Origin: Pseudopedobacter saltans DSM 12145
GTDB lineage: Bacteria > Bacteroidota > Bacteroidia > Sphingobacteriales > Sphingobacteriaceae
Length of the DNA: 64,000 nt
Assembly: GCF_000190735.1 (NCBI RefSeq)
Contig: NC_015177.1
Span: 1,488,001 to 1,552,000, forward strand
Direction of reading: 5' to 3'
Shown: positions 19,478-41,044 of the stretch, in pieces
How positions within the stretch are numbered: the stretch's first letter is position 1
Layout of the letters: every line of letters starts with the position of its first letter
The notes under the pieces: generated by a model
Seen by the model: the letters and a program-made list of their open reading frames with translations, nothing else
Databases searched by the model: none
What the model was told of the DNA's origin: nothing
Translations under genes and position numbers: made by a program

Positions 19478-19554
19478 GTATCCTTCACAATAAGGATTAT
19501 CCTGTTATGAATAGAGGATAAAGGTTGGTTTTAATGAGGATTTGGTGTATTTCA

Positions 19555-22524
19555 CTATTCGTAATATTTTAATTTACGTTTATTGAATGCAGGCATTGCA
19601 CCTTCTAAAACTTTTACGATACAATCGTTTATTACAGGATTTTCGATAGCTCCAGCTTTAAACGAAAATTTATAATTGTTTTCCTTATCTAATTCTGTGA
19701 AAATTACCTGTTCAGCATCCGCAACAACAGCTAAATTAGGATTATGTGTAACTAAAATTATTTGTCTTTTAGCTTTTGCTTTTTTTATAAATGGAACTAA
19801 AATATTAGCTACACTATGATTATCTAAATTATCTTCTGGTTGGTCAATGATCAGCGGAATATCATTATTATCTAACAATAAATAGAAAATTAAAAGCAAA
19901 GCACCTTTCTCTCCTGGGGATAATTGGTTTAAGCTTTTATTACCTTGACGAAGTTCATAATTATAATCAACGAAATCTAATGAGAATAAATAATCATATA
20001 ATTCAACGACATCACTAACTTGATTTTCAATATTAGTTGATTGATTATTAGCATCTCTCAAATCAACAAACAAAGCATTAGTAATAGATTTTAACAGGTC
20101 TGAAATATTATCAAATGTATCTAAACTTGATTGTTCCAATATTTTCTTTAACTGAAGTTCAGCGTTTTCTTTACCATAAAAAGTTCCTATTTTATTCAGA
20201 GAAATATATTCTAAAAACTTCTTTTGAAAGTTAGACTTCAAAACAAATGAAGCTTCTACTTGTATAGGGTATGCTGCAAGTAAATAAGCATTTTCTTCAA
20301 TTATTTTATCAATTTTTTGTTTAACATTTTTATAAATTCCTAATACAGATTCTTTTAGTTCAAAAATTTCTTTAGTTACTTCTATACGTAATTCTCTTTC
20401 TGTTTGAATTTCAGAATCAAGTATTTCATTAATATATTTTATTTCATTCTTAAAGAACTCAAGACTGCCACTTGTAGCGACATTTCCAATGATCTTATTC
20501 CTATTTTCTTCCCAATGCTTTTTATTAATAAGATAATTTTGATAGATTTTATCTGCCTCACCTAGCTCATTTTGTATTCTCGCTTGTTGTAACTTTAGTT
20601 CATTAATCTTTTGAGGAATAGTTTTAAAATTAGGATCATCGCTATTTTCTTCTCCTAATAGTACTTTTATTTTTGTGTATTCATCATCTTTTACTGTTAA
20701 TACCCTATCAATACTTTCTAGATTAGAAGTTATTGTTAAGATAGTGTTGATATCCAAACCGTATTTTAACAATTCATCTTTTATTTCTATTTTGAAGAAT
20801 TCAAATTCTTTAAGCTTATTTTCAATCTTTTGCTTAATTGCCTTCAAATTATTAATCTCAATCAATATATTTGATTTCTTATTCGTGGTAGAAATCAACA
20901 ATTCAGTTTCATCTTCAATTTTCTGATTTAATTCGAAAAGCTTCTGATTTATTACTAGATTATTTTTAGCATGTTCTGGGTCATCATTAGGATTAGGAAC
21001 TGCATTAGGTTCAATCAAAGCTTTTAATTCATTGTCTTTTAGTTGAATTTGATTTTCAATGCCTTTTTTATACTCAGGATTTAGTTTTTTCTCTTTCTCA
21101 AATAATGATTTATTTATTGCCAGAAGTTTGTTTTTTAAACCAAGTATTTCCTCTTCAGTAACTGAAGTTTTAAAATCGATTAATTGCTGAAAGGTATTTT
21201 TCCCCAATTTATCTGCTTCTTCTAAATGAGTGAACACAACATTCTCTATCTCTCTATTAAAATCCTCAACAGAATCGTGATTGTTTGTTAATCTTTCAAA
21301 ATAACCTTGAGGTAAATATTTCACCTTTTCGGGTACGGATTCCGCAACTTTGTCATTTAAGTTCTTGGTTACTGAGTTACCACTTTTCCATGTTAGCGTA
21401 GCTTCAAAATTAGATGATTTTCTACCATTATTTTCTCCAAATCGTTTCTTATTTAAAAAAGAAAAATCATCATGACTACCGCTATAATCTCCACATAATC
21501 CAATAATATCAGCTAATGCACTTTTACCATTACCTTTGTTTCCAATAATTGCAACTAATTCTGGATTCAGCGGAATTTCTATATTATTAAACCATTCACC
21601 TTGTGTTTTAGGATCATAGCCAGCAACTGAATTTAATTTAATTGAATCAATGTATTTTGTACGATTTGTATTTATCCTTTCTTCAATCGGATTTTTATCT
21701 TTAATTAGAACCCTATCAATAGGTTCAACAATTAAATGCTGTAATGCTTTAAAACTTTTTTCTCCTTTAATCCAACAGTATCTAGCAGTTGGTTTTGAAT
21801 CTCTATCTCGTAATTTCCCAAATGGATAATCTAATTGATGTGCATCACTACCTTTTAAACAAGCTATATTTTTTCCAACATCATTTACACACCTATCACT
21901 TAAAAAATAATCGATTTGCTTTTGATTTCCTGAACCTAATAAATGAGCAATATTAATAATACCTAATTTAAAAAACCCATCATTAACTGGATCTATAGCA
22001 TCAATTCCACCATATTCGTCATATGGAACCCATATTAAAAATTTGTTTTTTAATATAGAAGAATTAAGTTTTTTAATTGTTTCAAAATAATCGAAAGATA
22101 TTTTTTTTAACTCTTCAGGATTAGTAACATGTCCGAGTTTAGATTCATTTCCTCCATCAAATTTACATTCTAAACTATTTATCTCGACTTCTATGCTATT
22201 TACATCAATACTATTGTCAAATATTATATGAAAATTAATACTAACACCCCCATCGGTCGCAGTTGAATTTTTGTGATTAATTTTATTGTTCATTCTTAAT
22301 TCCACTACAGGAAATAGAATTTTATTATCAACACCTCCTAAATCAATAATTTTTTTATATCCTTGAATAGAACAATAATCATTAATGCCAATTACATCAG
22401 CTTCTGATTTTTTTAGATTTTCGATTAACGTTGGATAATCAGCATCATTTGCAAAACCCGATGCAGGTGTGTGCACATGTAAATCCCAAACATTCCATTC
22501 TGAACCTTTATTTATCATAATCAA
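19555..22524 (-). CDS. TrlF-type PHP-domain AAA/SMC-like ATPase
   Basis: 989 residues. Residues 10-260 are a PHP phosphoesterase domain: WDLHVHTPAS (13-22) gives the HxH metal site, VIGINDY the second motif, and GSDAHQ (225-230) the C-terminal metal motif. An ABC/SMC-type ATPase split by a coiled coil follows: Walker A IIGNKGNGKSALADI (GNKGNGKS at 328-335); a coiled coil over about 430-800; signature LSPGEKG; Walker B with D-loop LIIDQPEDNLDNHS; and H-loop ILVTHNPNLAV. The architecture matches the family annotated TrlF in restriction loci. Whether it cleaves nucleic acid or a nucleotide is unknown. The start could be the third codon (ATG). It is very AT-rich compared with hsdM. Confidence 0.85.
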   Translation of the reverse strand: MIMINKGSEWNVWDLHVHTPASGFANDADYPTLIENLKKSEADVIGINDYCSIQGYKKIIDLGGVDNKILFPVVELRMNNKINHKNSTATDGGVSINFHIIFDNSIDVNSIEVEINSLECKFDGGNESKLGHVTNPEELKKISFDYFETIKKLNSSILKNKFLIWVPYDEYGGIDAIDPVNDGFFKLGIINIAHLLGSGNQKQIDYFLSDRCVNDVGKNIACLKGSDAHQLDYPFGKLRDRDSKPTARYCWIKGEKSFKALQHLIVEPIDRVLIKDKNPIEERINTNRTKYIDSIKLNSVAGYDPKTQGEWFNNIEIPLNPELVAIIGNKGNGKSALADIIGLCGDYSGSHDDFSFLNKKRFGENNGRKSSNFEATLTWKSGNSVTKNLNDKVAESVPEKVKYLPQGYFERLTNNHDSVEDFNREIENVVFTHLEEADKLGKNTFQQLIDFKTSVTEEEILGLKNKLLAINKSLFEKEKKLNPEYKKGIENQIQLKDNELKALIEPNAVPNPNDDPEHAKNNLVINQKLFELNQKIEDETELLISTTNKKSNILIEINNLKAIKQKIENKLKEFEFFKIEIKDELLKYGLDINTILTITSNLESIDRVLTVKDDEYTKIKVLLGEENSDDPNFKTIPQKINELKLQQARIQNELGEADKIYQNYLINKKHWEENRNKIIGNVATSGSLEFFKNEIKYINEILDSEIQTERELRIEVTKEIFELKESVLGIYKNVKQKIDKIIEENAYLLAAYPIQVEASFVLKSNFQKKFLEYISLNKIGTFYGKENAELQLKKILEQSSLDTFDNISDLLKSITNALFVDLRDANNQSTNIENQVSDVVELYDYLFSLDFVDYNYELRQGNKSLNQLSPGEKGALLLIFYLLLDNNDIPLIIDQPEDNLDNHSVANILVPFIKKAKAKRQIILVTHNPNLAVVADAEQVIFTELDKENNYKFSFKAGAIENPVINDCIVKVLEGAMPAFNKRKLKYYE

Positions 22525-22657
22525 AGTTTTCTAGTAGTTTTTATTAGTTTTAATTTTCCACCAACCTCGCAAAGCGACTTAACAAAAAAGATTGCTATTG
22601 AGTGAGTTTTTAGACGATTATAAAAGCTTGTTCTAATTGTGATTCGGTGTATTTCAT
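22525..22657 (-). pseudogene. Deletion scar: hsdR 5' end joined to hsdS 3' end
   Basis: Read leftward, 22657 down to about 22620 encodes MKYTESQLEQAFI, nearly identical at DNA level to the start of the intact hsdR at 17677-17640 (MKYTELQLEQAFI). It then runs straight into 22608-22555, encoding KLTQ-stop-QSFLLSRFARL, which matches the C terminus of the intact hsdS (KLTQLQSFLLNRLTRLEG). The ATG of the relic overlaps the TGA stop of the PIN gene (ATGA), so the PIN gene was once coupled to an hsdR. The segment is therefore not intergenic filler but the remains of two type I genes. It has an in-frame stop and is not functional. Confidence 0.88.
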
Positions 22658-24711
22658 TGGTTAATTTCCTTCTCCCATTTATTTTTAAATTCAGTGAATT
22701 TATTTTCAATGTTTTCACCATTCAAAAGTCTATTAAAAATAAAAATAGCTGATCCTATCAAAAAAGTTGTAGGTAGTAACCATAACCATTTACAATATTC
22801 TTTTTGCATAGACCCTTCAGGCAGAGAGTTTGCATACTTGGTATAAACGGAAACCATATTCCAACCTTCATCTTGCCAAGCGAACAATAAAGTAATAAAA
22901 ATCAAACAAATAATTAAGATAGGGATACAGTAAAATGCTTTTGATTTATACTTCGCTAAATCAAGTTTCGCTTTAGTATTAATAAGTTCATTTCTAACCT
23001 TAGTATTTTTAGCTATTTCTGCTATTTTCTGCTCCTTTTCAACATCTTTTATTTGTTGTAGCTCTTCAATTGCATGTAACGTGTTTTCTTGATATTTCTC
23101 GAATTTGTTTTCTAATCTAGTCTTAGATTTCATCAATTGCTCAATTTGAATTTCTAATTGAGATTTAGCAAACAATCGAGATTTTTCAATTATTTCTTCT
23201 TCAGTATTAGCTTTATCTAAAATTCCTTTAAAACCAATATTAATCATTTGAGAAACGATAGTACTTTGTTGAGTAAAATCAGTTGTTATCTCCGAAATCC
23301 CATTTAATATCAATTGAAGGTTCTCATTAGAAATTCCCTTTTCCCCATTACTAATATTTAAAAAACTAACAAAACTCTTAAAGTCGTCATTTGTTCTATT
23401 TAGATATCGTAATAAAATACTCATCCACTGGGAAGGTAACAAAACTATAGGAATGGAATTATTTTGACTATAATCCCATTTTCTTAATAGCTGATCTGCT
23501 GAGATTAAGTAATATTTACAATCAAAAATATTAGCATAATGACCATTTCTGAGAAATTTAATTACTTGAATATTTTTTGCATCTAATATACTAGCCTCTA
23601 AATTAGATGGTCTCCTCTCACTTTTGAAAGAATTTATTTGAGACCCCATATCTAATATTAATTCTTCAATTTTTGAGTCCTTAACATCATAGTGCTCTTT
23701 ATAATCCTCTTTAATATCAAATTTTTTCTTTAAGTCATCTATTAAAGAAAATATATGCGCACTAAACAATTCGGTTGAATCATTTACTCTTTTTCTTCTC
23801 CATGTATGATAGTAATCAATAAAGTCTTGACTTTTTCTAAAATTCAGAAAAACCTCTGAGTTAATTTTGGCAGTATTATATTTTGCCATTTGTCCTATAT
23901 AGAAATCCAAAGTCTTTTTTATTTCATCTATAGTATATTTTGAAATATACAAAGACTCTTTTGCATCCTTAAATTTTTCAAGGAAAGTTAGCGTTCTATT
24001 CATACGATTTTCGCCATTTATTCCAATAGCTCTAAAAATCACATTCGTATCAAGATAAAACACCTTGTTTTTAAGATTCTCTAATTTAAAATTTGTCCCC
24101 TTTTTATTAGTGATTAAACAATACTCAAGAGCTAAATTTGAAATATCAAAAATCATTTTATTTTTCTCATCATTATCCCAATTCAAAAATGTATTGATAA
24201 TATCAATTTCTAAAGAATTTAAATTGTGATCATTATTACTCAATAAATCTTGAATCTGAATTGTAGGGTCTACAAGTTTGCTAAAACTAGAAATGTTGGT
24301 CTGAAAAATTTCGTACAAAAATCTATAAATGATAATTTTTAAATCTTTTAAATCAAATTGACCATTACTCTTGTGAAATTCTTCAATAAAATATTCTAAA
24401 TTATTCGTGACTATTTTGCTTTTAACAGCTTCAAAACGCTTTTGTGTAAGTGTAATTTTTATCTCATCAATTTTACAATTTGAGGTGTTAAAATAATCAG
24501 CATCTGAAACCACATCTCGAATTTCTTCTTCAGTAAAGTCTAAATTATATTGTTTATTTAGCTTATCAATTAATGAATGTAAACCAAGAAAATCATTATG
24601 ATTGTCTATGAAAACTGACTCTATGACTTTTCTATGTAAAGTTTTAGAACTTACTTCATAATTGTTATCAGCATAAAGAATAGCTGCTAGTCTAAATATT
24701 TCTTCTTTCAT
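22654..24711 (-). CDS. PIN-like nuclease with C-terminal coiled coil and two membrane helices
   Basis: 685 residues. The central part is PIN-like: VFYLDTNVIF with D221 at the end of the first strand, E263 in YTIDEIKK, D377 in LEASILDAKNIQVIKFL and D406 in YLISADQLL, an arrangement that fits the acidic quartet of PIN ribonucleases. The N-terminal 200 residues are helical and unrecognised. Residues about 510-590 are a charged coiled coil. Two hydrophobic helices follow at about 594-613 and 642-661, then a charged tail, so the nuclease part is probably tethered to the inner membrane on its cytosolic face. The gene lies 37 nt downstream of hsdS, and its stop overlaps the start of the hsdR relic. 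Assignment as a PIN-like defence effector is inference from motifs and context. Confidence 0.78.
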   Translation of the reverse strand: MKEEIFRLAAILYADNNYEVSSKTLHRKVIESVFIDNHNDFLGLHSLIDKLNKQYNLDFTEEEIRDVVSDADYFNTSNCKIDEIKITLTQKRFEAVKSKIVTNNLEYFIEEFHKSNGQFDLKDLKIIIYRFLYEIFQTNISSFSKLVDPTIQIQDLLSNNDHNLNSLEIDIINTFLNWDNDEKNKMIFDISNLALEYCLITNKKGTNFKLENLKNKVFYLDTNVIFRAIGINGENRMNRTLTFLEKFKDAKESLYISKYTIDEIKKTLDFYIGQMAKYNTAKINSEVFLNFRKSQDFIDYYHTWRRKRVNDSTELFSAHIFSLIDDLKKKFDIKEDYKEHYDVKDSKIEELILDMGSQINSFKSERRPSNLEASILDAKNIQVIKFLRNGHYANIFDCKYYLISADQLLRKWDYSQNNSIPIVLLPSQWMSILLRYLNRTNDDFKSFVSFLNISNGEKGISNENLQLILNGISEITTDFTQQSTIVSQMINIGFKGILDKANTEEEIIEKSRLFAKSQLEIQIEQLMKSKTRLENKFEKYQENTLHAIEELQQIKDVEKEQKIAEIAKNTKVRNELINTKAKLDLAKYKSKAFYCIPILIICLIFITLLFAWQDEGWNMVSVYTKYANSLPEGSMQKEYCKWLWLLPTTFLIGSAIFIFNRLLNGENIENKFTEFKNKWEKEINQ

Positions 24712-24748
24712 TTAAGTCTTTATCGGTTAATAGTCTATTGTACTTAGT

Positions 24749-25942
24749 TTACCCCTCCAACCTAGTCAATCGGTTTAACAAAAACGATTGTAGTTGAGTA
24801 AGTTTTTGGTTTTGTATAGTCTTTGATATTTTAACTCGGCTTACCAATTCAATATCTTTAGAAAACGTTGCTAAAATCTCTTTTTTAGGAAGTAATATTT
24901 TATATTCTAAAATCCAATCTTTATCTCCTCGTGGCATTTTTGTTCCTTTTGCTCCTTGCATTACGTAATCAAAGAATTGATCATTAAAAAGAATATTTAA
25001 TGCAAAAAACTGGTATACAATTTCTTTTGATCTAATACATAAAACATCATTTGAACATCCACCTTTTTTATTTGCAAACCAGATTTTTTTAAGATAAGGT
25101 CGAATATTTGAAATTAATATATCTCCTTTTTCAAAAACAGTTACATTATTTCCTTCTGGTACATTTGAAATAAATTCTACACCTTTTTTTTCAGGTAACA
25201 TACTTTCGGTTGAAATATAATTATCCGTTGTAAGATTTTTTAAAGCAATTTTAGTATCTGAGTAATAAATAATATCTTCTAACTTTCCAACCTCCCAACC
25301 CTCAGGAATTTCCTTTTCTAGTTCTTCGTTAAAAACCATTATTCCGCCAGAAGATTTATAAGGTTCTCCGTTTTCATTCGGAAACTCAAAATCTACAAAC
25401 CATTGTTTGTATAAGGTTTGCGCAGTCGCTTCTAATTGCTCACAAATTTGCTCGTTGACTTTGATTTTGTTTTCTACTGCTTGGTATTGAGCTACAATTT
25501 CACGTTGTTTTTCGATGGAAGGAATGGGTAATTCTACTTCACATAGATCCTCCCAATCAAAGGCTTCTCGCGTACTACCATGTGAATGATAACGAGCATA
25601 ACGATCAAACTCTGGTCTAGAAAACCACATCATTAAATATTCAGGTAATAATAGATTGGTATCAATAACCTCAAATACAATATAAATTTGAGAAACTAAA
25701 GCTTTGTCATATTCATCAGCTAAAGCAATCGAGATTTTATCTCCATTTCTGGAAGTAATCGTTCCATAGGCAAATTGTCCTTTTTCAACAATTTTGTAAG
25801 CAGACATATCTGTTCCAACCGTATTCGCAATGGAAGGAATCAATTTCTTGGTAATACTTACCCCTAACAATGTTTCAACTTGTAAATCTCGGTTACGGTT
25901 ATTTACTTGTTGAATGTAATCACCCAACTTTTTATAACTCAT
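24749..25942 (-). CDS. hsdS: Type I restriction-modification specificity subunit S
   Basis: 397 residues with the two-half plan of HsdS. TRD1 is about 1-145. The central conserved helix begins at LPIPSIEKQREIVAQYQAVE and ends at YKQWFVDFEFP. TRD2 is about 215-355 (PEGWEVGKLEDIIYYSD is its start), and the distal helix ends LTQLQSFLLNRLTRLEG. Each TRD reads half of a bipartite DNA target, which cannot be predicted here. The start overlaps the hsdM stop by 11 nt. Only one complete hsdS is present; a relic of the 3' end of another occurs at 22555-22608. Confidence 0.94.
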   Translation of the reverse strand: MSYKKLGDYIQQVNNRNRDLQVETLLGVSITKKLIPSIANTVGTDMSAYKIVEKGQFAYGTITSRNGDKISIALADEYDKALVSQIYIVFEVIDTNLLLPEYLMMWFSRPEFDRYARYHSHGSTREAFDWEDLCEVELPIPSIEKQREIVAQYQAVENKIKVNEQICEQLEATAQTLYKQWFVDFEFPNENGEPYKSSGGIMVFNEELEKEIPEGWEVGKLEDIIYYSDTKIALKNLTTDNYISTESMLPEKKGVEFISNVPEGNNVTVFEKGDILISNIRPYLKKIWFANKKGGCSNDVLCIRSKEIVYQFFALNILFNDQFFDYVMQGAKGTKMPRGDKDWILEYKILLPKKEILATFSKDIELVSRVKISKTIQNQKLTQLQSFLLNRLTRLEG

Positions 25943-27491
25943 AACCTAACGATTTAAACACATTAGCTACTTCTTGTTTCAATGCTTCTTCTTGTTGAAA
26001 CAAATCTTTCAATTCCGTTTGTAAACTTTGCATTTGCGTATCGTAATCTAAATTTTCATCACGGTTCACAAACTCAATGTATTTACTCGGTACTAAAGAA
26101 TAATCTTTTTTACGGATTTCTTCTACGTTTGCGCTGTAACAATATTCTGCTTCGTTAGTATATTTCGATTCAAAATCTTTCTGTTGCCAATTATGATAGG
26201 TTCCTGTAATGTATTCAATATCATTTTCAGAGAACTGAATAAATTTCTTTTCAAAAGGTTCTCCTTTTTGACGTAAATCCATAAACAACACTTCACCTTT
26301 ACGATTACGGTAGTTCTTTATACCATCGTTAACTTCAACCGTACGTTCTGTTTTGTTACGGTTCAAAATCCAAAGCGTTACCGAAATATCTGTAGAATAA
26401 AACATTGCTCTTGGTAAAATCACAATCGCTTCTACCAAGTCGTTTTCTATAATTTGTTTACGGATTTTGTATTCTTCACCACCACCTGAAAGGGCTCCAT
26501 TGGCTAAGATAAAACCAGCTACACCGTTTTGCGAAAGTTTCGAAATCATGTTCAAAATCCACGCATAGTTGGCATTGGATTTTGGAGGAACTTCGTAACC
26601 AGTCCAACGGGTATCGTCAGTCAACTCGTTTTCGGCTCGCCAATCTTTTAAATTGAAGGGAGGATTCGCCATGATGTAATCCGCTTTCAATTCTTTGTGC
26701 TGGTCATCAGCAAAAGTATCGGCAGCTTTGTTTCCTAAATTGGCAGAAATACCACGGATAGCCAGGTTCATTTTAGCCAGTTTAAAGGTGGTATTGGTCA
26801 ATTCTTGTCCGTAAATAGAAATGTCTTTTTTATTGCCCTGATGTTTTTCAATAAATTTTAACGATTGTACAAACATACCACCCGAACCACAGGAAGGGTC
26901 ATAGATTTTACCTTTGTAAGGTTCTATCATCTCAGCAATCAGGTTCACAATGGACTTCGGCGTATAGAATTCACCTTTCCCTTTTCCTTCGGCTATGGCA
27001 AATTTGCTTAAGAAATATTCGTACACACGTCCCACAATATCTTGCGCTTCATCACGTAGGGTATCAATGTTATTGATGGTATCCAATAAAGCCGAAAACT
27101 TGGATTGGTCTAAGCCCAAACGGGAGAAATAATTATCTGGCAAAGCACCTTCCAACGATTTATTGGTGCGCTCTATGGTTTTTAAGGCTGAATCTACTTT
27201 CAGCGTGATATCCTCTTGTTTGGCGTTTTCGATAATATACGTCCAACGTGATTCCACAGGCAAATAGAAAACATTTTCTGCCTGATAGAATTCCGGAATT
27301 TCCAGAAAAGCATTTTGTCCTTCTTTAATGAGTTCTTCTCTACGTCTGATGAATTTATCACTTGCAAACTTTAAGAAAATTAAACTCAATACTACATGCT
27401 TATATTCTGAAGGCTCTACCGAACCCCTTAATTTATTTGCCGAATCCCACAGTATCTCTTCTGTTGATTTTGTTTGTACTTTTTTTGCCAT
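25932..27491 (-). CDS. hsdM: Type I restriction-modification DNA methyltransferase subunit M
   Basis: 519 residues. The N-terminal helical domain (ILWDSANKLRGSVEPSEYKHVVL) is HsdM_N. The methyltransferase core has GEFYTPKSIVNLIAEM, the SAM-binding IYDPSCGSGGMFVQS, and the catalytic NPPF (MANPPFNLKDW), the N6-adenine (N/D)PPF/Y motif. C-terminal helices contact HsdS. It modifies adenine in the target set by HsdS and forms the M2S1 core to which HsdR binds. It is the first gene of the restriction series, with a 170-bp gap upstream that should contain its promoter; no convincing -7 box was found. Confidence 0.95.
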   Translation of the reverse strand: MAKKVQTKSTEEILWDSANKLRGSVEPSEYKHVVLSLIFLKFASDKFIRRREELIKEGQNAFLEIPEFYQAENVFYLPVESRWTYIIENAKQEDITLKVDSALKTIERTNKSLEGALPDNYFSRLGLDQSKFSALLDTINNIDTLRDEAQDIVGRVYEYFLSKFAIAEGKGKGEFYTPKSIVNLIAEMIEPYKGKIYDPSCGSGGMFVQSLKFIEKHQGNKKDISIYGQELTNTTFKLAKMNLAIRGISANLGNKAADTFADDQHKELKADYIMANPPFNLKDWRAENELTDDTRWTGYEVPPKSNANYAWILNMISKLSQNGVAGFILANGALSGGGEEYKIRKQIIENDLVEAIVILPRAMFYSTDISVTLWILNRNKTERTVEVNDGIKNYRNRKGEVLFMDLRQKGEPFEKKFIQFSENDIEYITGTYHNWQQKDFESKYTNEAEYCYSANVEEIRKKDYSLVPSKYIEFVNRDENLDYDTQMQSLQTELKDLFQQEEALKQEVANVFKSLGYEL

Positions 27492-27661
27492 AAATCTATT
27501 ACCCCATCCAACCTTTGTATAAAATTATAAGCTTACAAAAGCATTTGAAGCGAATGTTTTTCTTGAAAATTAAAAGGGTAAATCTAAGAATTATAAATCC
27601 TAGTCATAAGACAATAGATCAGCAAGTTTTCAACAATTAGCAAGGAAGAGGAAGTATCCAT

Positions 27662-28297
27662 TTAGCTCAATGGATTATCATAGTGGTATTTCACTTTTTT
27701 TAGTACATTTTTTGTTTCCTCAAACGCATTATCCAGTTCAACATCTTCAAAAATTTTAAGCTCAAACTGCCCGGTATGAATATTAAATATGCCTACCTCC
27801 ACTTTATCTACTTCGCACTGGTAATATCTTTCTGCCAGATACATTTGAAAAAGAGGATATTTCAATTGATTGTACCAAGGCAATGTATTCTCTTCTATAG
27901 AAAAGGCTATATTTCTAGTATCATTAGAACATAGAATCGGAGATCTTCCTCCTAAAAAGGCATCAGGAAGTACCTTCCAATTTATCAGGGTATAATTATT
28001 ATCCAATCCAAAACCGTTCTCATCCATAAACTTTGTATAAGCAAGAAAAGCGTCACAATATTTCACAGCCCTTCTTTCGTTATCAGCATTGGCAACAAAG
28101 CTCAATTTAAAAGCATCGCTTAAAAGTGCGTGAAGTTTCTCAATTTCTATATCTTCATGATGAAATCGCCCTATATAATTAGAAAATGTACCTTTAAAAG
28201 AACCGTTATTTCCAAATCCAGATTTTTTGCCTAATTCAGCAGCTACTGATTTAGGATCAAATCTCGCATTCTCTAGTTTTGTAACACTTAATTTCAT
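27662..28297 (-). CDS. Uncharacterised protein upstream of hsdM
   Basis: 211 residues, no signal peptide or membrane segment, and not recognised as a family. The first part reads KLSVTKLENARFDPKSVAAELGKKSGFGNNGSFKGTF, Gly/Lys/Ser-rich. The C-terminal part LFQMYLAERYYQCEVDKVEVGIFNIHTGQFELKIFED has the helix-strand-strand feel of a nuclease-like or Cas4/RecB-type core, with E and an E-x-K-like FELKIF, but this is weak. It is on the same strand as the type I genes and 170 bp ahead of hsdM. It may belong to the island or be its left-over boundary gene. Confidence 0.6.
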   Translation of the reverse strand: MKLSVTKLENARFDPKSVAAELGKKSGFGNNGSFKGTFSNYIGRFHHEDIEIEKLHALLSDAFKLSFVANADNERRAVKYCDAFLAYTKFMDENGFGLDNNYTLINWKVLPDAFLGGRSPILCSNDTRNIAFSIEENTLPWYNQLKYPLFQMYLAERYYQCEVDKVEVGIFNIHTGQFELKIFEDVELDNAFEETKNVLKKVKYHYDNPLS

Positions 28298-28628
28298 AGT
28301 CTACTTTAGATTTTAACTATAAATATAGTAAATACAACAATTATATAAATCAATAATAAACAACAACTTAACAATTAACATTATTTCAAAAAAAATCCAA
28401 CAACATCTATTTAAGTAGGCAATGCAGGTACATGTATATTACTTAAAGGAAACATATATCTCCATTACCTAAAAAGGTTGTCAAAAAATAACATTATGCA
28501 GAACTATGTCTCAAAAATCCTCAAACTTTTACTCTTGAATAAAGTAATGACCTTTTGTAAGATGCATAAAAGATCTTCACTAAATTCATGATAACTATCC
28601 GGATTTTTGAGACAAATTCAATAACTAG
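28298..28628. repeat. Gene-free stretch holding a 108-bp element with 14-bp terminal inverted repeats
   Basis: TGTCTCAAAAATCC (28507-28520) and GGATTTTTGAGACA (28601-28614) are perfect complements bracketing 80 bp of AT-rich sequence. It marks the junction between the defence island and the lysis-like cassette. No flanking direct duplication is evident. It could be a miniature element or a recombination boundary. 28298-28500 is AT-rich with nothing recognised. Confidence 0.55.
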
Positions 28629-29108
28629 CTATCCTCGCCTCTCCACCCACCACCACCACCCCAAAACAAATATCACCAGCACACCACCCACAATCCATTT
28701 AAAACCAAAGCTCCACTTATCCCGACTAACCTCCTTTTGTTCACTCTGCTTCAACTCCATCGAAACGTGGCGATCCTTCCTTACTACCCTTTGTTCCCTC
28801 TGATCCATCATTTTTTCCCTCTGCCTGTTCTGCTTCAATTTAGAAATCACCAACTGACCACCATCCAAACGTAGCCCGGAATCCGGATGCCACTGGAAGG
28901 GCTGTTGTGAGATAATGGAGACCTGGTAAAGCGCTGCATTAACATGATCCCATTCATGGGTTGTCTCTGACAATGCACTACTATCCTGTAGGTTCGTCTG
29001 CACATGTAAAGCCAGAGAATCTTTGCTGATAGATTTATGCCGGGAAGAGTTACGAGCGTTACAAGCCAATACTAACAGAATAACAACGCTATAGATAGTT
29101 GTTTTCAT
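28629..29108 (-). CDS. Lipoprotein with C-terminal membrane helix (single-molecule spanin-like)
   Basis: 159 residues. The N terminus MKTTIYSVVILLVLAC is a lipoprotein signal with acylatable Cys16. The C terminus has one strong membrane helix at about 134-153 (FKWIVGGVLVIFVLGWWWW) followed by VERRG. The intervening about 115 residues are polar and mostly helical, rich in K, R, Q and E. A lipid anchor at one end and an inner-membrane helix at the other is the defining plan of phage unimolecular spanins, which link outer and inner membranes. The start overlaps the CHAP gene stop by 4 nt (ATGA). I infer a spanin-like role from topology and from the adjacent CHAP and holin-like genes; no sequence family is recognised. 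Confidence 0.72.
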   Translation of the reverse strand: MKTTIYSVVILLVLACNARNSSRHKSISKDSLALHVQTNLQDSSALSETTHEWDHVNAALYQVSIISQQPFQWHPDSGLRLDGGQLVISKLKQNRQREKMMDQREQRVVRKDRHVSMELKQSEQKEVSRDKWSFGFKWIVGGVLVIFVLGWWWWVERRG

Positions 29109-29656
29109 AAGCTGGCCTCCTTTCCTACCCAGTCGGCATAACTGTAAATAGTTTTCTTATGCCTTCTTTTACGGTATACGCCGTCGCCTTCCCAAGAGCC
29201 ATTATTATTAGTATTACCTTCAATGGTAATCAGCCAATCGCCATCTACCCGTTCCACCAGTCCAACATGAGCTACCCTTTTAAGCTCAGGAAAGTAGATG
29301 CCAAAAACCACAGCCCTTTGTGGCTGCTTCACATTTACAGCGTTATTAAACATGGCCGGAGACCATGCCGTACGTGGTTGCGCAAAGCCAGCTTTCTGGA
29401 ACACCCAGCTTACGAAAGCTGCACACCAGGGCGCTTCTTGTTTTAAGCCTACAGCTTTAAGGTATTCTGCTATCCTTTTACCATCGTTGTTGCCAGTAAG
29501 CTCCCGTACGCCAATTTCATTACGGGCCAGCTGGACAATCCGGTTTCTACTTTGCAGATCGGCCGACGGATTCTTTAACAGATTGCTATGAGACAGGCTA
29601 TAGCTGTGAACAGCAATAAGGCAAAGGATGCCCAGTAAAGCTTGAATTGTTGCCAT
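29105..29656 (-). CDS. CHAP-domain peptidoglycan hydrolase (endolysin-like) with N-terminal hydrophobic segment
   Basis: 183 residues. Residues 1-20 are a hydrophobic signal or signal-anchor. The CHAP domain (NlpC/P60-like amidase/endopeptidase) follows: VQLARNEIGVRE; the catalytic Cys in EAPWCAAFVSWVF; the His in RVAHVGLVE; and the polar residue in TIEGNTNNNG. Such enzymes cleave peptide crosslinks or the amide bond of peptidoglycan. The gene overlaps the upstream holin-like gene by 82 nt. No later ATG is available, so the overlap seems real unless an alternative start codon is used. Gene order and overlaps resemble a phage holin-endolysin-spanin cassette. Confidence 0.82.
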   Translation of the reverse strand: MATIQALLGILCLIAVHSYSLSHSNLLKNPSADLQSRNRIVQLARNEIGVRELTGNNDGKRIAEYLKAVGLKQEAPWCAAFVSWVFQKAGFAQPRTAWSPAMFNNAVNVKQPQRAVVFGIYFPELKRVAHVGLVERVDGDWLITIEGNTNNNGSWEGDGVYRKRRHKKTIYSYADWVGKEASL

Positions 29657-29937
29657 ACCGAAAGTAATTTAATTTGTGAAACCATAGTTTGAATATCCGG
29701 AAGCCCCAGCATGTCCAGGAAATGCTCCATCAACCACCAGCACAGCGCTAGGAGCAGCATGAATACGATAATTGCCAGGATAATCAGATACCAGATACCC
29801 ATATCTACCAGTCCAATGGTACTGTCTACACGGTAAATCCAGAAAGGTGCGCTCCACCATAATAGCAAGAGCATGCTGAAAAACAGCAAAGCCGCATAGG
29901 GCTTAAAAGAATATTGAAAAAGTTTTAAAGTACTCAT
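29575..29937 (-). CDS. Small three-helix membrane protein (holin-like)
   Basis: 120 residues with three strongly hydrophobic helices at about 13-34, 46-70 and 100-119, and a short charged stretch (PDIQTMVSQIK) before the last. The size and three-helix plan are those of class I holins; holin sequences are too divergent for a family call. It directly precedes and overlaps the endolysin-like CHAP gene, which supports the reading. It could instead be a generic membrane protein of a secretion unit. Confidence 0.62.
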   Translation of the reverse strand: MSTLKLFQYSFKPYAALLFFSMLLLLWWSAPFWIYRVDSTIGLVDMGIWYLIILAIIVFMLLLALCWWLMEHFLDMLGLPDIQTMVSQIKLLSVWQQFKLYWASFALLLFTAIACLIAIC

Positions 29938-29963
29938 GATTATGAAATTTTTATGGAATAATT

Positions 29964-30012
29964 AAAACAAAAGCTCCCTCTAACAGAGGTAATCTCACTT
30001 GCAGAGGGAGCT
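29964..30012 (-). terminator. Terminator after the DUF6266 gene
   Basis: Perfect 10-bp arms AGCTCCCTCT (29972-29981) and AGAGGGAGCT (30003-30012). Leftward they are followed by TTTGTTTT. It lies between the DUF6266 gene and the holin-like gene, so the lysis-like genes may depend on read-through or on their own promoter. Confidence 0.75.
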
Positions 30013-30077
30013 GTTTAAGCTGTACCGGAAGATTTTTCAACCAATCATCCCGGCAACAGCTATCACTTGGTTAACCT

Positions 30078-30728
30078 TTAGGAAGCAATCAGCGCTTTGC
30101 CTACATACTCGCTATTAGATACCTTTTTTCCGTCTCTGGAGATAAAGGCCACGTAGACCTCCACTTCATCGCCCGAAAAGTTAAGCGGCACCACCACATC
30201 CTGACTTTCCGAACCACGGGTAACACCTCCTCTCTGGAAGATATAACGCGCCTTGGCCGGATTATACACCAGAAACATCAGTTTATCATCCGTGTGTGCA
30301 TTTTCTTCATGGCTGGTATTGTCTGTCCAGCTAATGGTTAAACTTCCGGCTGCTGATGACTCTGCTAGAGGATCCATAGCCGGAGCTACAGGTCCCACGC
30401 TGATAAGCAATTTGGTATAGTCTAGCTCATAATCCGGAAAAGTACCTGTGATGGCATTTTTCATGGTGTACTGCACCGCCAAATTATAACCGCTTACCCT
30501 TTGTTTCGCATAATTACCAAAGCCTGTATTGACCAGGACACTGATAGGTTTATTGAAGTTTACCGCCAGCGCAAATTTTAAATGCTGGCTCATTTGACTT
30601 TCTGTAGGCGCCTTGCCCGATTTTCTTGGAAGACTGCGCATATAATCTATGCCTTTCCAATGACTGCCTATAACTGTTCCGACCTTGCCGGAAAAGTTTC
30701 CGAGTATTCCTCGACTATAACGTCCCAT
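30078..30728 (-). CDS. DUF6266-family protein
   Basis: 216 residues, without a signal peptide. It begins MGRYSRGILGNFSGKVGTVIGSHWKGIDYMRSLPRK, the conserved opening of DUF6266 (GRYxxGILGxFSGKVGxVVG), quoted in parts: GILGNFSGKVGTVIGSHWKG. The second half (SLTISWTDNTSHEENAHTDDKLMFLVYN and VEVYVAFISRDGKKVSNSEYVG) is a beta-sandwich reminiscent of fibronectin-like modules. The family is frequent and multicopy in Sphingobacteriaceae; its function is unknown. Placed before a holin/endolysin/spanin-like set, it could be a structural or exported protein. This is inference. Confidence 0.85.
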   Translation of the reverse strand: MGRYSRGILGNFSGKVGTVIGSHWKGIDYMRSLPRKSGKAPTESQMSQHLKFALAVNFNKPISVLVNTGFGNYAKQRVSGYNLAVQYTMKNAITGTFPDYELDYTKLLISVGPVAPAMDPLAESSAAGSLTISWTDNTSHEENAHTDDKLMFLVYNPAKARYIFQRGGVTRGSESQDVVVPLNFSGDEVEVYVAFISRDGKKVSNSEYVGKALIAS

Positions 30729-31298
30729 TTTTTTGACTTTTAAAAATTAATAATTAGACCAAATGGCTGCTGCTGATACCGGTATATTTGCTTGCCACAT
30801 AACAAACATAACGTGTTGATTTACAGAGAACAACAGCATGACTAGTATTGAAGGAATTTGATTGATATTGGTTGATATTGAAGGTTTTTCCTTCGCTGAT
30901 TTTACTGTTCAGGCCGAAATTACCGGGACAGGTCATCAGCAAGGCATGTACTGGTACGCCGTTTTATCTTCGTTTTTCCTTCACTTTTCTTAGTGTTTTC
31001 CTTCGTTCCGTAAGAGAAACGTAAGACAAGCGTAAGAGGAACGTAAGACAAGCGTAAGAGAAACGTAGGAGAAGCGTAAGAAAAACGTAAGCCTTGCAAG
31101 GGAGATGGTACGGAGGAGTGAAGGAGAAATGTAAGAGAAACGTAAGAAAACCGAAGGCCCTCGATTAACTGTTAGACATGTTCTGTAAACTGTGTTGGAA
31201 GTACTCTATTGGGCAGCTTTACGCTTTTAGCCTTTGGTCTTCAGTGGTTTAAATTCCAGCACCGTCTCTGGAAAAGAACGATGCCGGAAATTTAACAT
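30729..31298. repeat. Gene-free stretch dominated by an 11-bp-phased repeat array
   Basis: From 30968 to about 31160 the sequence is built of 11-bp units. Four units in one orientation (CTTCGTTTTTC, CTTCACTTTTC, TTAGTGTTTTC, CTTCGTTCCGT) are followed from 31009 by at least seven uninterrupted units of consensus CGTAAGARAAR. More units (GAAATGTAAGA, GAAACGTAAGA) follow after a short break. The 11-bp period does not preserve a reading frame. A 62-codon frame at 30754-30942 has no recognised similarity and I do not call it a gene. Confidence 0.7.
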
Positions 31299-31595
31299 TC
31301 AGAGATCTTTGTCGAATTTTTGCTCTACGGCATAAATGTCCGATAACAGATAGAACTTACCTCCTAATGCCCGGGGAACCAGGATTCCTTTCTGTTTGTA
31401 ACGCAATAAGGTGCTATCGCTGATACCCAATAGCTTTTTTACCCGGGTTGCGTCAACGACATGGTCTTTATCCAAAGCGTTGAGCTGGTTTTCCTTTGCT
31501 TTTAGTTCCATCATTTTTTTCAATAACTCAGCGATTTGTTGCATTTCACTCTTAATCACTGGTAGCTCTTGTAAAAGGTGTAAAATTTCAATCAT
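31299..31595 (-). CDS. Helix-turn-helix protein (MerR-like HTH_17 / excisionase type)
   Basis: 98 residues. The N-terminal half is a coiled-coil-like helix (LHLLQELPVIKSEMQQIAELLKKMM). The C-terminal half is a winged HTH: VVDATRVKKLLGISDSTLLRYKQKGILVPRALGGKFYLLSDI matches the HTH_17 pattern of small DNA-binding proteins in Bacteroidota mobile elements. It could regulate the DUF6266/lysis-like genes 570 bp downstream or bind the 11-bp-phased repeats between them. That is a positional inference. Confidence 0.8.
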   Translation of the reverse strand: MIEILHLLQELPVIKSEMQQIAELLKKMMELKAKENQLNALDKDHVVDATRVKKLLGISDSTLLRYKQKGILVPRALGGKFYLLSDIYAVEQKFDKDL

Positions 31596-31668
31596 ACGTA
31601 GTGTTATTTTTTAAAAATTTAAAATTATTATGCATTAAGAAATAAATCGTAAGTTTATAACTCCAATT

Positions 31669-31676
31669 TAACTTTG
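31669..31676 (+). promoter_or_regulatory. Predicted -7 element of the Crp-like gene
   Basis: TAACTTTG matches TAnnTTTG exactly, 38 nt before the ATG at 31715. No TTTG at the expected -33 distance was found. Confidence 0.5.
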
Positions 31677-31714
31677 TTAGATTAAAAATTAATTAACCGA
31701 AATCAAATAATGTT

Positions 31715-32290
31715 ATGGAAAAAGATTCGCTCTTAGAATATCTGGATGAAGTGCATCCGCTATCGGAAGATTTGAAAATATTTTTAGGCAACCGCCTGCG
31801 TTTTTTAACTATTTCAAAGAATGATTTTTTGTACAGACAAGGGGAAATTCTGCAAACTGTTTACTTTGTTATAGAGGGACTTTTAGTTAGACAAACACGT
31901 ATAGAAGAACGTGAGCAGATTACAGCTTTCTATAAAGAAAAGGATTTCCTGATAGAGCATCATAGCTTCCATTTACATCAAAAAGTGCGTTATACGGTGT
32001 TTGCAGAGGAAAATACCCGTCTGCTGTGCTTGCATTACAGAGATGTCATGAGTATGTACCAGCTGTATCCGGAGTCGAATTATATTGCCCGCTTTTTTCT
32101 GGAACACTACCATTGTCTGAAAGATCAGCATACTTCTTTACTCCTTTACCTTAACCGTTCTATGCGTTATGCTAAATTTAAAGAACTGATGCCCTGGGCA
32201 TTATGTCGTTTGAAATTGGGACAGATTGCCTCTTATCTGAACATGGCTCCAGAAACACTTAGCCGGGTCAGAAACGCAGCTATGCCTTGA
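31715..32290 (+). CDS. Crp/Fnr-family transcriptional regulator
   Basis: 191 residues. The cNMP-binding-like barrel has FLTISKNDFLYRQGEILQTVYFVIEGLLV, then ITAFYKEKDFLIEHHSF and RLLCLHYRDVM. The C-terminal HTH is LKLGQIASYLNMAPETLSRVRN, the typical Crp recognition helix (APETLSRVR). The cyclic-nucleotide phosphate-binding motif is not conserved, so the ligand is unknown. It is divergent from the HTH_17 gene with a 119-bp shared upstream region, so it may control the neighbouring cassette or unrelated genes. Confidence 0.83.
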   Translation: MEKDSLLEYLDEVHPLSEDLKIFLGNRLRFLTISKNDFLYRQGEILQTVYFVIEGLLVRQTRIEEREQITAFYKEKDFLIEHHSFHLHQKVRYTVFAEENTRLLCLHYRDVMSMYQLYPESNYIARFFLEHYHCLKDQHTSLLLYLNRSMRYAKFKELMPWALCRLKLGQIASYLNMAPETLSRVRNAAMP

Positions 32291-32496
32291 TTTAAATCAA
32301 TAATTTTTTGGTGGGCAACAATAAAATTTTGCGTCGGTTATGAAAATTTTTCTTTGACAGGTTCAGTTTGAATCTGGTCTTTCATTATTTTGTCGCAGGT
32401 AAATATTAATATGAAAAATTATCGGCAACATTTAACACGAGTAGCTTGAATTTTCAACTCAACCTGCTTAGCTCATCTATTTACCATAGTACACTA

Positions 32497-32703
32497 CTAA
32501 ATTGGAGAAAATAGTGATTTTAAAATAAAAGCTATACCAATTATTATACATATAATAATTGTCCCCCAACCGTGAACATACAAAGGCAATATTGGTCCAT
32601 TCCAATTGGTATGCTCCGAAGCAGGTCCCCCTTTAATTCCCCGATAAATTAAATAAGCCACTAATAAGAAGCCAACACCTATAAAAAAATATTTCCAGTT
32701 CAT
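32497..32703 (-). CDS. Small two-helix membrane protein
   Basis: 68 residues with two hydrophobic helices (YFFIGVGFLLVAYLIYRG and GTIIICIIIGIAFILKSLF) joined by a short loop containing GPASEHTNWNGP. The pattern recurs in small uncharacterised inner-membrane proteins of Bacteroidota. There are no catalytic motifs. It is on the same strand as the following lipoprotein gene. Confidence 0.62.
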   Translation of the reverse strand: MNWKYFFIGVGFLLVAYLIYRGIKGGPASEHTNWNGPILPLYVHGWGTIIICIIIGIAFILKSLFSPI

Positions 32704-32784
32704 TTAAGATAAAGAATTTAAAATTCGAATATGTGGCTAGTCAAAAGATTCCTATTCTAATTTATCAATTGAAACTTCTTATAT

Positions 32785-33363
32785 TTATAATTTAAAAGAT
32801 ATAGTCCCTTCTTCATTAACCATTTCGGTATCATATCCCAAAGAATTATAGGTCCGCTTAAATTTCAGTTTAGAAATATCTAAGCCGTCTTCCAATTGAA
32901 TTCCCTTTGCTGCACTTTTTAATACATCATACTGCAAAGGCATCTCGCCCCACTCTAGCGTATAGGAATATGCATCCAATATCGTATTATTTTGATTGGC
33001 CTTGATGATTAATATATCATGAAATGTTTTAACTGAGTCTCCTTCCTCTCCAGGAAAAGTCAGGTTCTCACCTTTGAAAGTGGCAATAAATTGGTAATAA
33101 TTGTACTTTCCCTGTTCAGGTTCAAAGATTGAAATTAGATTCTTTGTCACTACCGCACTTTTTATATGGGCATCTATATTATTAAGTTGTTTGTAGTTGA
33201 AATCGGCATTTATCAAATGTTTCTTTAGCACAAATTTCCTGGACTCATGCAAACCAGTAACTGCTGTATCTATCTTATCGGACTCAAAAATGGTTTTTGT
33301 TGTTGCCCTATTCCTGCAATTTGTAAATAAGAGGATGGCAAAAAGTATGGTATACCTTATCAT
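32785..33363 (-). CDS. Uncharacterised lipoprotein
   Basis: 192 residues with a lipoprotein signal: MIRYTILFAILLFTNC, Cys16. The mature part is polar and probably beta-rich (VVTKNLISIFEPEQGKYNYYQFIATFKGENLTF). No family is recognised. It probably shares a transcript with nothing upstream, because the next upstream gene is on the opposite strand. Confidence 0.65.
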   Translation of the reverse strand: MIRYTILFAILLFTNCRNRATTKTIFESDKIDTAVTGLHESRKFVLKKHLINADFNYKQLNNIDAHIKSAVVTKNLISIFEPEQGKYNYYQFIATFKGENLTFPGEEGDSVKTFHDILIIKANQNNTILDAYSYTLEWGEMPLQYDVLKSAAKGIQLEDGLDISKLKFKRTYNSLGYDTEMVNEEGTISFKL

Positions 33364-33496
33364 ATTTCGATGTTTTTACCCTTCATTCAATTTAATAATC
33401 AAAAAAAGATTATTGCTTATTGCAAGTTAAAAGAATATTGGAATTTTAGGCGGAATTTGGTTACATTAGAGTTATTTCGAATTATATTCAACAGCG

Positions 33497-33802
33497 ATGT
33501 TCCCCACCGATATAGAATTTACAACCTTATATGTTATATATTTTATAGGCTTTGTTTTTACTATATACCTCATTTTAAAAAGTAGAAGAACCAATAAAAT
33601 CAGGTTAGTATTGATAACGGCAAGCAGCCTGGCATTAAATGCAAGTTTGTTTTATAATCCCGAAAATTTCAAATATGGTGGTTCTTTAGTTATTCTGTTC
33701 TACTCGGTAATTATTTTCTTACTCACCATAACTGCTGTAACTGTAAATCAGCTTTATCCGCACATTAAACGGAGCAATAAACACCACCGGACAGATGAGT
33801 AG
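33497..33802 (+). CDS. Possible small membrane protein
   Basis: 101 residues with three hydrophobic stretches (TTLYVIYFIGFVFTIYLIL, IRLVLITASSLALNASLF, SLVILFYSVIIFLLTITAV) and a basic C terminus (HIKRSNKHHRTDE). There is no recognised family and no clear promoter. Regular helix spacing and a basic end favour a real protein. A frame-overlapping alternative at 33370-33585 has no such features. Confidence 0.5.
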   Translation: MFPTDIEFTTLYVIYFIGFVFTIYLILKSRRTNKIRLVLITASSLALNASLFYNPENFKYGGSLVILFYSVIIFLLTITAVTVNQLYPHIKRSNKHHRTDE

Positions 33803-34036
33803 TTCAGCAAATGGGGCATGTGGATAAGGAAATACGCAAGGTCGATAATTCGCATGCCAAAATTTGAGATTCAAAAAGGTAAATAAAAGTTCTGTAAGCG
33901 TATTAATGGCAATAGCTATTAACGCAAAGATCCTTCGACTCTCCCGAAGCCAATTCGGGACAGGCTGCTCAGAATGACGATGTTGAGAGTTTGTATAATA
34001 CAAACTAACACAGAACCAAGAACACCAGCACAAGCA
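33803..34036. repeat. Short gap with solo REP-like sequence
   Basis: Around 33930-33985 the block CCTTCGACTCTCCCGAAG ... GGGACAGGCTGCTCAGAATGACG is a solo REP-like sequence related to the arms at 7-10 kb and 58 kb. Nothing else is recognised. Confidence 0.5.
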
Positions 34037-40700: not shown

Positions 40701-41044
40701 ACTTTCTTCGATAGTACAGCCAGTGGCATTATATGATTTGGAAGCCGGAGGTAGGTTTGGATCTTTCCAGCTAAAGGGAAATGCTTCCGCATTCTTGAAG
40801 CACATTATAGAAAACATCAAATACCTTCTAAAAAAACTAGGCCTGTCCGGCTCCCGAAGAGAGTTCGGGACAGGTTCTGAGGACGGAAAGCCCGAAGCGT
40901 AGTAGAAGATGAGGGAAAGATTATATAAGTATAGCCCTCATCCGCCCTTCGGGCACCTTCTCCCCAAGGAGAAGGACAAATAAAACAATGGTAGTGAATG
41001 CTTATAGGAGATCCTGGAACGAGCTCAGGATAACGTATTAGCAG
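37764..41044. repeat. 3.2-kb mosaic array of non-coding interspersed repeats
   Basis: No credible gene. Repeat type R1 (about 315 bp, from CTGCCATTCATTCTTCGCAT through the TTTTTGAAAAAGAAAC hairpin and GCTCTATCCTCACGCTCAGG to CCAGTGGCATTATATG) occurs at 38678-38992, 39471-39786, 40057-40363 and 40427-40740. Type R2 (about 150 bp, ends GGATAAATCTTT and AAAGATTTATCC) occurs at 38222-38378, 39028-39177 and 39791-39944. Type R3 (ACATTCCTAAGAACGCTCTA..GGCATTATAAG) occurs at about 37945, 38180, 38587 and 39365. A reverse copy of the 5.1-kb repeat is at 40757-40895. Short frames inside R1 appear in every copy on both strands and vary in length. Confidence 0.8.
37768..37813 (-). promoter_or_regulatory. 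GbsR promoter with overlapping operator; predicted leaderless start
   Basis: On the leftward strand TTTG (complement of 37795-37798) and TATGTTTG (complement of 37768-37775) are separated by exactly 19 bp, matching the Bacteroidota -33/-7 promoter. An imperfect inverted repeat (CTTTCA...CTGAAAATT, 37791-37813) covers the -33 box. Only four bases separate the -7 box from the ATG at 37763, so the transcript would start at or almost at the start codon. Confidence 0.7.

What the first reader, a model, noticed from the sequence alone, without database searches (positions are those of the whole stretch)
28629..31595. Orphan holin-endolysin-spanin-like cassette with DUF6266 and HTH genes
Three overlapping genes encode a three-helix membrane protein, a CHAP hydrolase with an N-terminal hydrophobic segment, and a lipoprotein ending in a membrane helix. 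The last is the single-molecule spanin topology (Cys16 lipobox, helix 134-153). No phage head, tail or integrase genes surround them. Phage-derived lysis modules are known to export proteins in some Gram-negatives (holin-based secretion). Here DUF6266, abundant and uncharacterised in Sphingobacteriaceae, would be a candidate cargo, with an HTH protein as regulator. To my knowledge this combination has not been described.
Basis: partly seen in the sequence, partly recalled or inferred. Interest (0 to 1): 0.75.

Follow-up and report, generated by a model that had tools for sequence, protein, structure and literature searches.

The report
Bacterial lysis cassette with paired protein
A bacterium carries a phage-like set of cell-bursting genes that seems to have become its own, together with a small cytoplasmic protein; probably a few cells burst to release that protein.

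Summary
At 28629-31595 (minus strand) lie HTH, DUF6266, a three-TM protein (TM3), a CHAP endolysin and a lipoprotein with a C-terminal TM helix; no head, tail or integrase gene was found nearby. The cassette recurs in Sphingobacteriaceae, with three copies in this genome. TM3 and CHAP overlap by exactly 82 nt in 35 of 43 cellular pairs. Bacteroidota phages carry the same pair at similar spacing without DUF6266; a small TM gene sits upstream of TM3 in 42 of 52 viral cases, 0 of 43 cellular. The lysis genes are thus phage-derived, and all five genes are under purifying selection. DUF6266 models as a basic N-domain plus FN3 domain, without a signal peptide. Another protein, FN3B, takes its role in 15 of 61 mapped loci. 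DUF6266 also pairs with a separate CHAP lineage and with a non-homologous lysis set in Bacteroidales. Best reading: a type-10-secretion-like lytic release system with exchangeable cargo. Against it: most DUF6266 genes stand alone (49 of 76 lack CHAP within 4 kb), TM3 matches no holin family, and release is untested. New variant of a known kind.

The parts
31299..31595 (-). HTH protein (98 aa, MerR/excisionase-like), putative regulator
   Evidence: Weak profile matches; HTH near CHAP in 24 of 48 CHAP-bearing cellular loci
31009..31151 (.). Short-period (11/22 bp) tandem repeats between HTH and DUF6266
   Evidence: TRF; short-period repeats in 18 of 37 DUF6266-upstream gaps against 26 of 185 other gaps
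30078..30728 (-). DUF6266 protein (216 aa), proposed cargo: basic N-terminal domain plus FN3 domain (residues 112-216), no signal peptide
   Evidence: PF19781 1e-57; AF2 model pLDDT 89; FN3 match Z 12.3, rmsd 2.1, 94 residues; no hydrophobic N-terminus
29575..29937 (-). TM3, three-helix membrane protein, holin by position only
   Evidence: Family A2; relatives before CHAP in Bacteroidota-type phage contigs; no known holin profile matches
29575..29656 (-). 82-nt out-of-frame overlap: last helix of TM3 and hydrophobic N-terminus of CHAP share DNA
   Evidence: 35 of 43 cellular pairs and 17 of 51 viral pairs have exactly 82 nt, 12 of 51 viral 79 nt; both peptides printed
29105..29656 (-). CHAP endolysin (183 aa) with hydrophobic N-terminus; Cys78, His130, Glu146 and Asn148 invariant in 22 sequences
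   Evidence: PF05257, phrog_9589; alignment A4; distant relatives (under 60% identity) annotated endolysin in Streptomyces phages
28629..29108 (-). Lipoprotein (Cys16) with C-terminal TM helix, unimolecular-spanin topology
   Evidence: Sequence; Cys16 invariant in 21 aligned; C-terminal TM in 36 of 43 relatives, 38 at a relaxed threshold

Best explanation
It is a bacterial, phage-derived lytic release cassette (type 10 secretion-like). On a signal read by the HTH protein, a small fraction of cells makes DUF6266 together with TM3, CHAP and the u-spanin. TM3 permeabilises the inner membrane or times lysis, CHAP cuts peptidoglycan, and the lipoprotein-TM protein fuses or disrupts the outer membrane. 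The cell opens and the signal-less cytosolic DUF6266 protein (conserved basic N-domain, more variable FN3 domain) is set free to act outside. Shown here: gene content, phage descent of CHAP, a shared TM3-CHAP arrangement with phages, selection, recurrence, and repeated pairing of DUF6266 with lysis genes. Inferred: that the triad lyses, that the HTH regulates, that DUF6266 is the cargo, and what it does outside.
For: (1) CHAP within 4 kb of DUF6266: 22 of 56, chance about 0.45. In 151 family genomes, 45 of 53 with CHAP also have DUF6266, against 23 of 98 without (lists; related genomes inflate this). (2) Phage descent: TM3-CHAP pair with 79-82-nt overlap in 29 of 51 viral pairs; on a CHAP tree the 'viral' label needs 3 changes against 39.8 in shuffles. 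(3) DUF6266 occurs with three lysis backgrounds: the Sphingobacteriaceae CHAP lineage, a separate CHAP lineage in Prolixibacteraceae/Bacteroidales, and a non-homologous holin-endolysin-lipoprotein set in L208, L237, L239, L268. (4) FN3B, a protein not detectably related, takes the same role in 15 of 61 mapped loci, with cargo switches on the CHAP tree. (5) dN/dS 0.05-0.40 for the five genes in 15 comparisons, plus one with no amino-acid change; two were saturated. (6) In three genomes of the genus, cargo and HTH are far more diverged than CHAP and spanin between copies. (7) No N-terminal hydrophobic segment in 133 of 133 DUF6266. (8) Known T10SS are holin/endolysin/spanin clusters outside phages (PMC10847048, passages).
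Against: Most DUF6266 genes stand alone: 49 of 76 lack CHAP within 4 kb, and 64 of 81 loci in the phylum sample have neither lysis type (some contigs are cut short). TM3 matches no holin family, and the small TM gene that precedes it in phages is missing in the 43 cellular cases, so the holin may be absent. CHAP has its own hydrophobic N-terminus and may not need a holin. 5 of 48 CHAP-bearing loci have no recognised cargo. The pattern of point 6 fails in the own genome, G023, G035 and G126, where the spanin is as diverged as the cargo or more. In the Bacteroidales CHAP lineage the downstream gene has an N-terminal TM and no lipobox, and L255 keeps a small TM gene. A lipobox-plus-TM gene follows CHAP by my simple test in 30 of 48 cellular loci only. 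No experiment shows lysis or release.
Confidence: 0.5

Rival explanations
1. Decaying prophage lysis genes that happen to lie beside DUF6266.
For: The lysis genes are of phage descent; a few copies are reduced, e.g. L089 without a labelled TM3 or cargo and L094 without cargo.
Against: Open genes in many species, dN/dS 0.05-0.40 (one genus only); constant gene order; no virion gene found by the scans made here; the cellular form differs consistently from phages in lacking the small TM gene (0 of 43 against 42 of 52).
Confidence: 0.1
2. Abortive-infection or programmed-death device: the HTH or DUF6266 senses phage infection and triggers lysis.
For: In this window the cassette abuts a defence island with AbiH, HsdR, AbiEii/AbiEi-like, HsdS and HsdM.
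Against: No PADLOC match for four of the five proteins, a weak one for the HTH. Whether other copies lie near defence genes was not tested. Lysing an infected cell would help phages unless it came early.
Confidence: 0.13
3. DUF6266 is not cargo but controls lysis, for instance an antiholin or timing factor replacing the phage's small TM gene.
For: It sits where phages carry the small TM gene (22 of 43 cellular TM3 genes have DUF6266 directly upstream).
Against: It occurs with unrelated lysis sets, can lie between TM3 and CHAP (L204, L207, L282), and other loci have FN3B instead; a specific inhibitor would hardly fit all of these.
Confidence: 0.1
4. Non-lytic export: the same cassette lets cargo out of living cells.
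For: Claimed for Salmonella T10SS (PMC13284979, abstract).
Against: Lysis reported for Yersinia entomophaga and Serratia T10SS (PMC10847048, passages); a spanin-like gene is kept here.
Confidence: 0.1

Closest known systems
Type 10 secretion systems (Serratia, Yersinia YenLC, Salmonella)
   Same: Holin/endolysin/spanin gene cluster of phage origin outside a phage, near transcription factors (PMC10847048, passages)
   Different: CHAP endolysin, single-molecule spanin topology, Bacteroidota, an FN3-type protein in the operon, several copies per genome
Lysis genes of Bacteroidota-type phages (IMG/VR contigs)
   Same: TM3 found in 54 of 80 loci, mostly with 79-82-nt overlap (29 of 51 pairs); a lipobox-plus-TM gene follows CHAP in 32 of 78 by a simple test
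   Different: Usually a small TM gene upstream of TM3 and no DUF6266 (0 of 80 loci); the spanin profile of the cells matches only 6 of 80 viral loci
T1 gp11-type unimolecular spanins
   Same: Lipobox, C-terminal TM helix, last gene of a lysis cassette, no other Cys in the window protein (PMC6139136, passages)
   Different: No match to known spanin profiles above cut-off; half of the relatives with a lipobox (14 of 28) have further Cys
Explosive cell lysis of Pseudomonas aeruginosa
   Same: A lysing subpopulation releases cytosolic content (PMC4834629, start of abstract in the listing)
   Different: There (recalled) the endolysin belongs to a pyocin locus; here lysis genes and one protein form a unit

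Membership tests
Type 10 secretion system | Holin + endolysin + spanin gene cluster | tested here: inconclusive
   Endolysin and spanin topology present; holin only by position and topology, no profile match
Type 10 secretion system | Lies outside a phage genome | tested here: met
   No head, tail or integrase match among neighbours scanned; no PF00589 integrase within about 290 kb of any of the three cassettes
Type 10 secretion system | Derived from phage lysis genes | tested here: met
   CHAP tree and shared overlap
Type 10 secretion system | Cargo release depends on the cassette | not testable with these tools
   Needs deletion and secretome
Unimolecular spanin | Lipobox plus C-terminal TM helix in one protein | tested here: met
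   Window protein; 28 of 43 relatives with regex lipobox, 36-38 of 43 with C-terminal TM
Unimolecular spanin | No periplasmic Cys (none in the 58 known) | tested here: met
   Window protein has one Cys only; among relatives only 14 of 28 with a lipobox lack further Cys
DUF6266 (PF19781) | Score above curated cut-off | tested here: met
   195.4 bits against 23.4
CHAP endolysin | CHAP domain with catalytic Cys and His | tested here: met
   PF05257 over cut-off; Cys78 and His130 invariant in 22
TIGR02594 | Score above curated cut-off | tested here: not met
   62.5 bits against 70.55
Known anti-phage defence system | PADLOC model match | tested here: not met
   None at E 0.01 for four proteins; HTH only mad1 at 0.0025

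The most novel reading that the evidence does not exclude
Bacteroidota possess a family of cell-owned lysis-release operons, perhaps about twenty in one genome, each pairing a phage-derived lysis set with its own regulator and an exchangeable FN3-type cargo. The cargo pool (DUF6266, FN3B) moves between unrelated lysis modules. DUF6266 is then a new class of protein released by self-sacrifice, for instance a bacteriocin-like or matrix-binding protein whose FN3 domain sets its target.
Probability: 0.35. Interest if true: 0.8.

Novelty: new variant of a known kind. Interest (0 to 1): 0.62.

Why it matters
It would carry lysis-based protein release (type 10 secretion) into the Bacteroidota, where the searches made here found no description, and give DUF6266, found in 68 of 151 family genomes and 21 of 296 phylum genomes, a testable role. 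An operon with its cargo candidate built in makes the open question of lytic against non-lytic type 10 release testable in a laboratory Pedobacter. The fixed 82-nt gene overlap and the missing small TM gene also give a before-and-after picture of how bacteria may take over phage lysis genes.

Tried and rejected
HU-HIG parallel: the Bacteroidales DUF6266-lysis loci L239 and L238 have DUF3987/PriCT_2 primase-like genes upstream; L229 and L255 seem to as well, by matching positions (inference). I recalled a Bacteroides locus of primase, HU-Ig protein and amidase and asked whether DUF6266 sits in the HU-HIG slot. None of 9 HU-HIG loci fetched has a gene of the lysis families I hold, and this genome has no DUF3987, so I dropped it. 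The recalled paper is not held.

DUF6266 as a phage gene: no match in 50,697 phage records, none in plasmids, no PHROG, 1 locus in IMG/VR on a 4.3-kb contig. Rejected. The best BFVD structure match of the whole model is an uncharacterised viral protein at TM-score 0.47, not followed. N-domain folded alone: best Foldseek E 1.9, best VIA-align Z 3.7; this does not show a new fold. FN3B and DUF6266 are not shown to be related (hhalign probability 0.7%, E 0.08), and the FN3 label of FN3B rests on one below-cut-off match in three proteins scanned. Bacteroidetes promoter pattern (recalled): no site in the cassette, 5 in the window against 4.8 expected. Rfam: nothing in 26000-34000. The tail-collar search was not informative. 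Repeats round many cassettes were considered as element borders, not pursued.
Full report
What is there. TM3 and CHAP overlap by 82 nt out of frame, so the last TM3 helix and the hydrophobic N-terminus of CHAP are coded by the same DNA. CHAP and the lipoprotein overlap by 4 nt. The window lies in a 4.64-Mb genome of one contig. The genome has six DUF6266 genes over the family cut-off and three TM3-CHAP cassettes.

Not chance, and not an orphan. In 60 genomes (own included) I compared all 76 DUF6266 places with 56 CHAP genes: 22 of 56 CHAP genes lie within 4 kb of DUF6266, about 0.45 expected. In the other direction the link is weaker: 27 of 76 DUF6266 genes have a CHAP within 4 kb. I fetched eight of these 21, and all eight carry a different ~210-aa protein, FN3B, after CHAP. 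In all, FN3B was found in 15 of the 61 cellular loci mapped, each time next to a CHAP cassette; in L288 it sits before TM3, in the DUF6266 position. The 61 loci were chosen for DUF6266 or CHAP, so these are not frequencies: 28 have CHAP with DUF6266, 15 CHAP with FN3B, 5 CHAP with neither, 13 no CHAP. In 151 family genomes, 45 of the 53 with CHAP also have DUF6266, against 23 of the other 98; relatedness inflates this. In a similarity-ranked sample (best 80 of 547 genome loci plus one viral contig), 13 of 81 DUF6266 loci have the CHAP set and 4 more the second lysis set, so 64 have neither; some contigs end close by.

Phage descent. The best 80 of 545 viral-contig relatives of CHAP were mapped: 54 have TM3 beside a CHAP gene call, 6 match the cells' spanin profile, and DUF6266 is in none. 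The overlap is 82 nt in 17 and 79 nt in 12 of 51 viral pairs, and 82 nt in 35 of 43 cellular pairs. A small TM protein lies directly upstream of TM3 in 42 of 52 viral cases and 0 of 43 cellular ones, where DUF6266 is the upstream gene in 22. A CHAP tree of 119 rows (36 cellular with DUF6266, 15 with FN3B, 5 other, 63 of the viral ones) needs 3 changes of the label 'viral' against 39.8 in shuffles. The 53 Sphingobacteriaceae rows fall together with four viral rows inside, on a fork of moderate support (87/87, drawn open). Three Bacteroidales/Prolixibacteraceae rows (L229, L238, L255), also paired with DUF6266, sit with viral rows in a different branch (100/98). There the gene after CHAP has an N-terminal TM and no lipobox, and L255 has a small TM gene between DUF6266 and TM3, so that lineage is closer to the phage form. 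DUF6266 and FN3B cassettes are interleaved; L276 with DUF6266 lies among FN3B rows (100/98).

A third, unrelated lysis set. In L208, L237, L239 and the short contig L268, DUF6266 is followed by a membrane protein (in L239 a PF05105 holin over its cut-off; in L208 and L237 another small TM protein), a 136-137-aa protein and a lipoprotein with a C-terminal helix. The 136-aa protein resembles PHROG endolysins and proteins of Bacteroides phages annotated mostly as endolysin, in one record as virion protein, some beside a holin. Profiles of its endolysin and lipoprotein match nothing in the cellular CHAP loci or the viral loci. That DUF6266 occurs with two CHAP lineages and with a non-homologous set argues for a functional link and not mere inheritance of one cluster.

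Selection and exchange. Between cassettes of three genomes of the genus, dN/dS is 0.05-0.14 for DUF6266, 0.09-0.19 for CHAP, 0.19-0.24 for the lipoprotein, 0.14-0.40 for TM3 and 0.10 for HTH; of 18 comparisons two were saturated and one had no amino-acid change. Within G008, G010 and G013, different cassettes share 67-85% of CHAP and 74-91% of spanin residues, but only 20-39% of DUF6266 and 26-31% of HTH; the near-identical pair L086/L087 is the exception. This pattern does not hold elsewhere: in the own genome, G023, G035 and G126 the spanin is as diverged as the cargo or more. L080 (G008) and L083 (G010) share 7.9 kb at 97.7% up to inside TM3, yet carry DUF6266 alleles of 22-24% identity beyond it. 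No long match was found on the other side in the few kilobases held, so a larger rearrangement is possible.

The cargo candidate. The DUF6266 model (85 sequences, pLDDT 89) has a low-confidence beta arm (residues 1-35), two helices and a C-terminal FN3 domain (Z 12.3, rmsd 2.1, 94 residues). The arm is the best conserved part (0.77, against 0.59 for 36-111 and 0.52 for FN3). The N-domain is basic (pI 10.0), the FN3 domain acidic (4.8), and 133 of 133 family members examined lack a hydrophobic N-terminus. The N-domain alone gives no clear PDB match. FN3B has a weak fn3 match (E 0.0033 in one of three, below cut-off), and 14 of 15 lack a hydrophobic N-terminus.

How it probably works. The closest known systems are type 10 secretion systems, described as holin/endolysin/spanin clusters outside phages; in Yersinia entomophaga and Serratia they were reported to act by lysis of a subpopulation (PMC10847048, passages), while a 2026 Salmonella study argues for non-lytic export (PMC13284979, abstract). 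The lipoprotein fits the topology of T1 gp11 (PMC6139136, passages), and unimolecular spanins have been annotated in flavobacterial phages (PMC8776804, passages). I therefore propose lytic release of DUF6266 by a subset of cells under the HTH protein's control. The lysis activity, the control and the cargo role are inferred. The weakest points are the absent holin match, the missing small TM gene and the many solitary DUF6266 genes. These may be served in trans, as the Yersinia T10SS lies apart from its toxin island, or may mean that DUF6266 has a function without lysis.

Novelty. Searches of the library for DUF6266 (0 papers), T10SS with Bacteroidota, type 10 secretion system with Bacteroidetes (5 papers, listing only, none by title on this) and lysis cassette with fibronectin type III and Bacteroid found no description. 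Most subscription journals and preprints are not held.

Noticed in passing
window 12267-27491: Defence island next to the cassette: AbiH, HsdR, AbiEii and DUF6088/AbiEi-like pair, AAA ATPase, HsdS, HsdM.
   Followed up: partly
window 31009-31151: Short-period tandem repeats (CGTAAGAGAAA type) between HTH and DUF6266; such repeats, of different sequence, are enriched upstream of DUF6266 (18 of 37 gaps against 26 of 185; length-matched 10 of 24 against 16 of 118; loci are related).
   Followed up: partly
window 37927-40745: Array of intergenic repeats (371-bp and longer units), also found beside another cassette of this genome in L072.
   Followed up: no
G035 (L100-L103, L277-L281): One Sphingobacteriaceae genome has about 22 CHAP genes of this family; of nine loci fetched, one has DUF6266 and eight FN3B.
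   Followed up: partly
L080 and L083: Near-identical flank and lysis genes (97.7% over 7.9 kb) with quite different DUF6266 and HTH; the match stops inside TM3.
   Followed up: partly
L238, L239 (also L229, L255 by position): DUF3987/PriCT_2 primase-like genes upstream of DUF6266-lysis cassettes in Bacteroidales.
   Followed up: partly
L259, L261: Four tandem DUF6266 genes with no gene of the CHAP, TM3 or spanin families in the stretch held.
   Followed up: no
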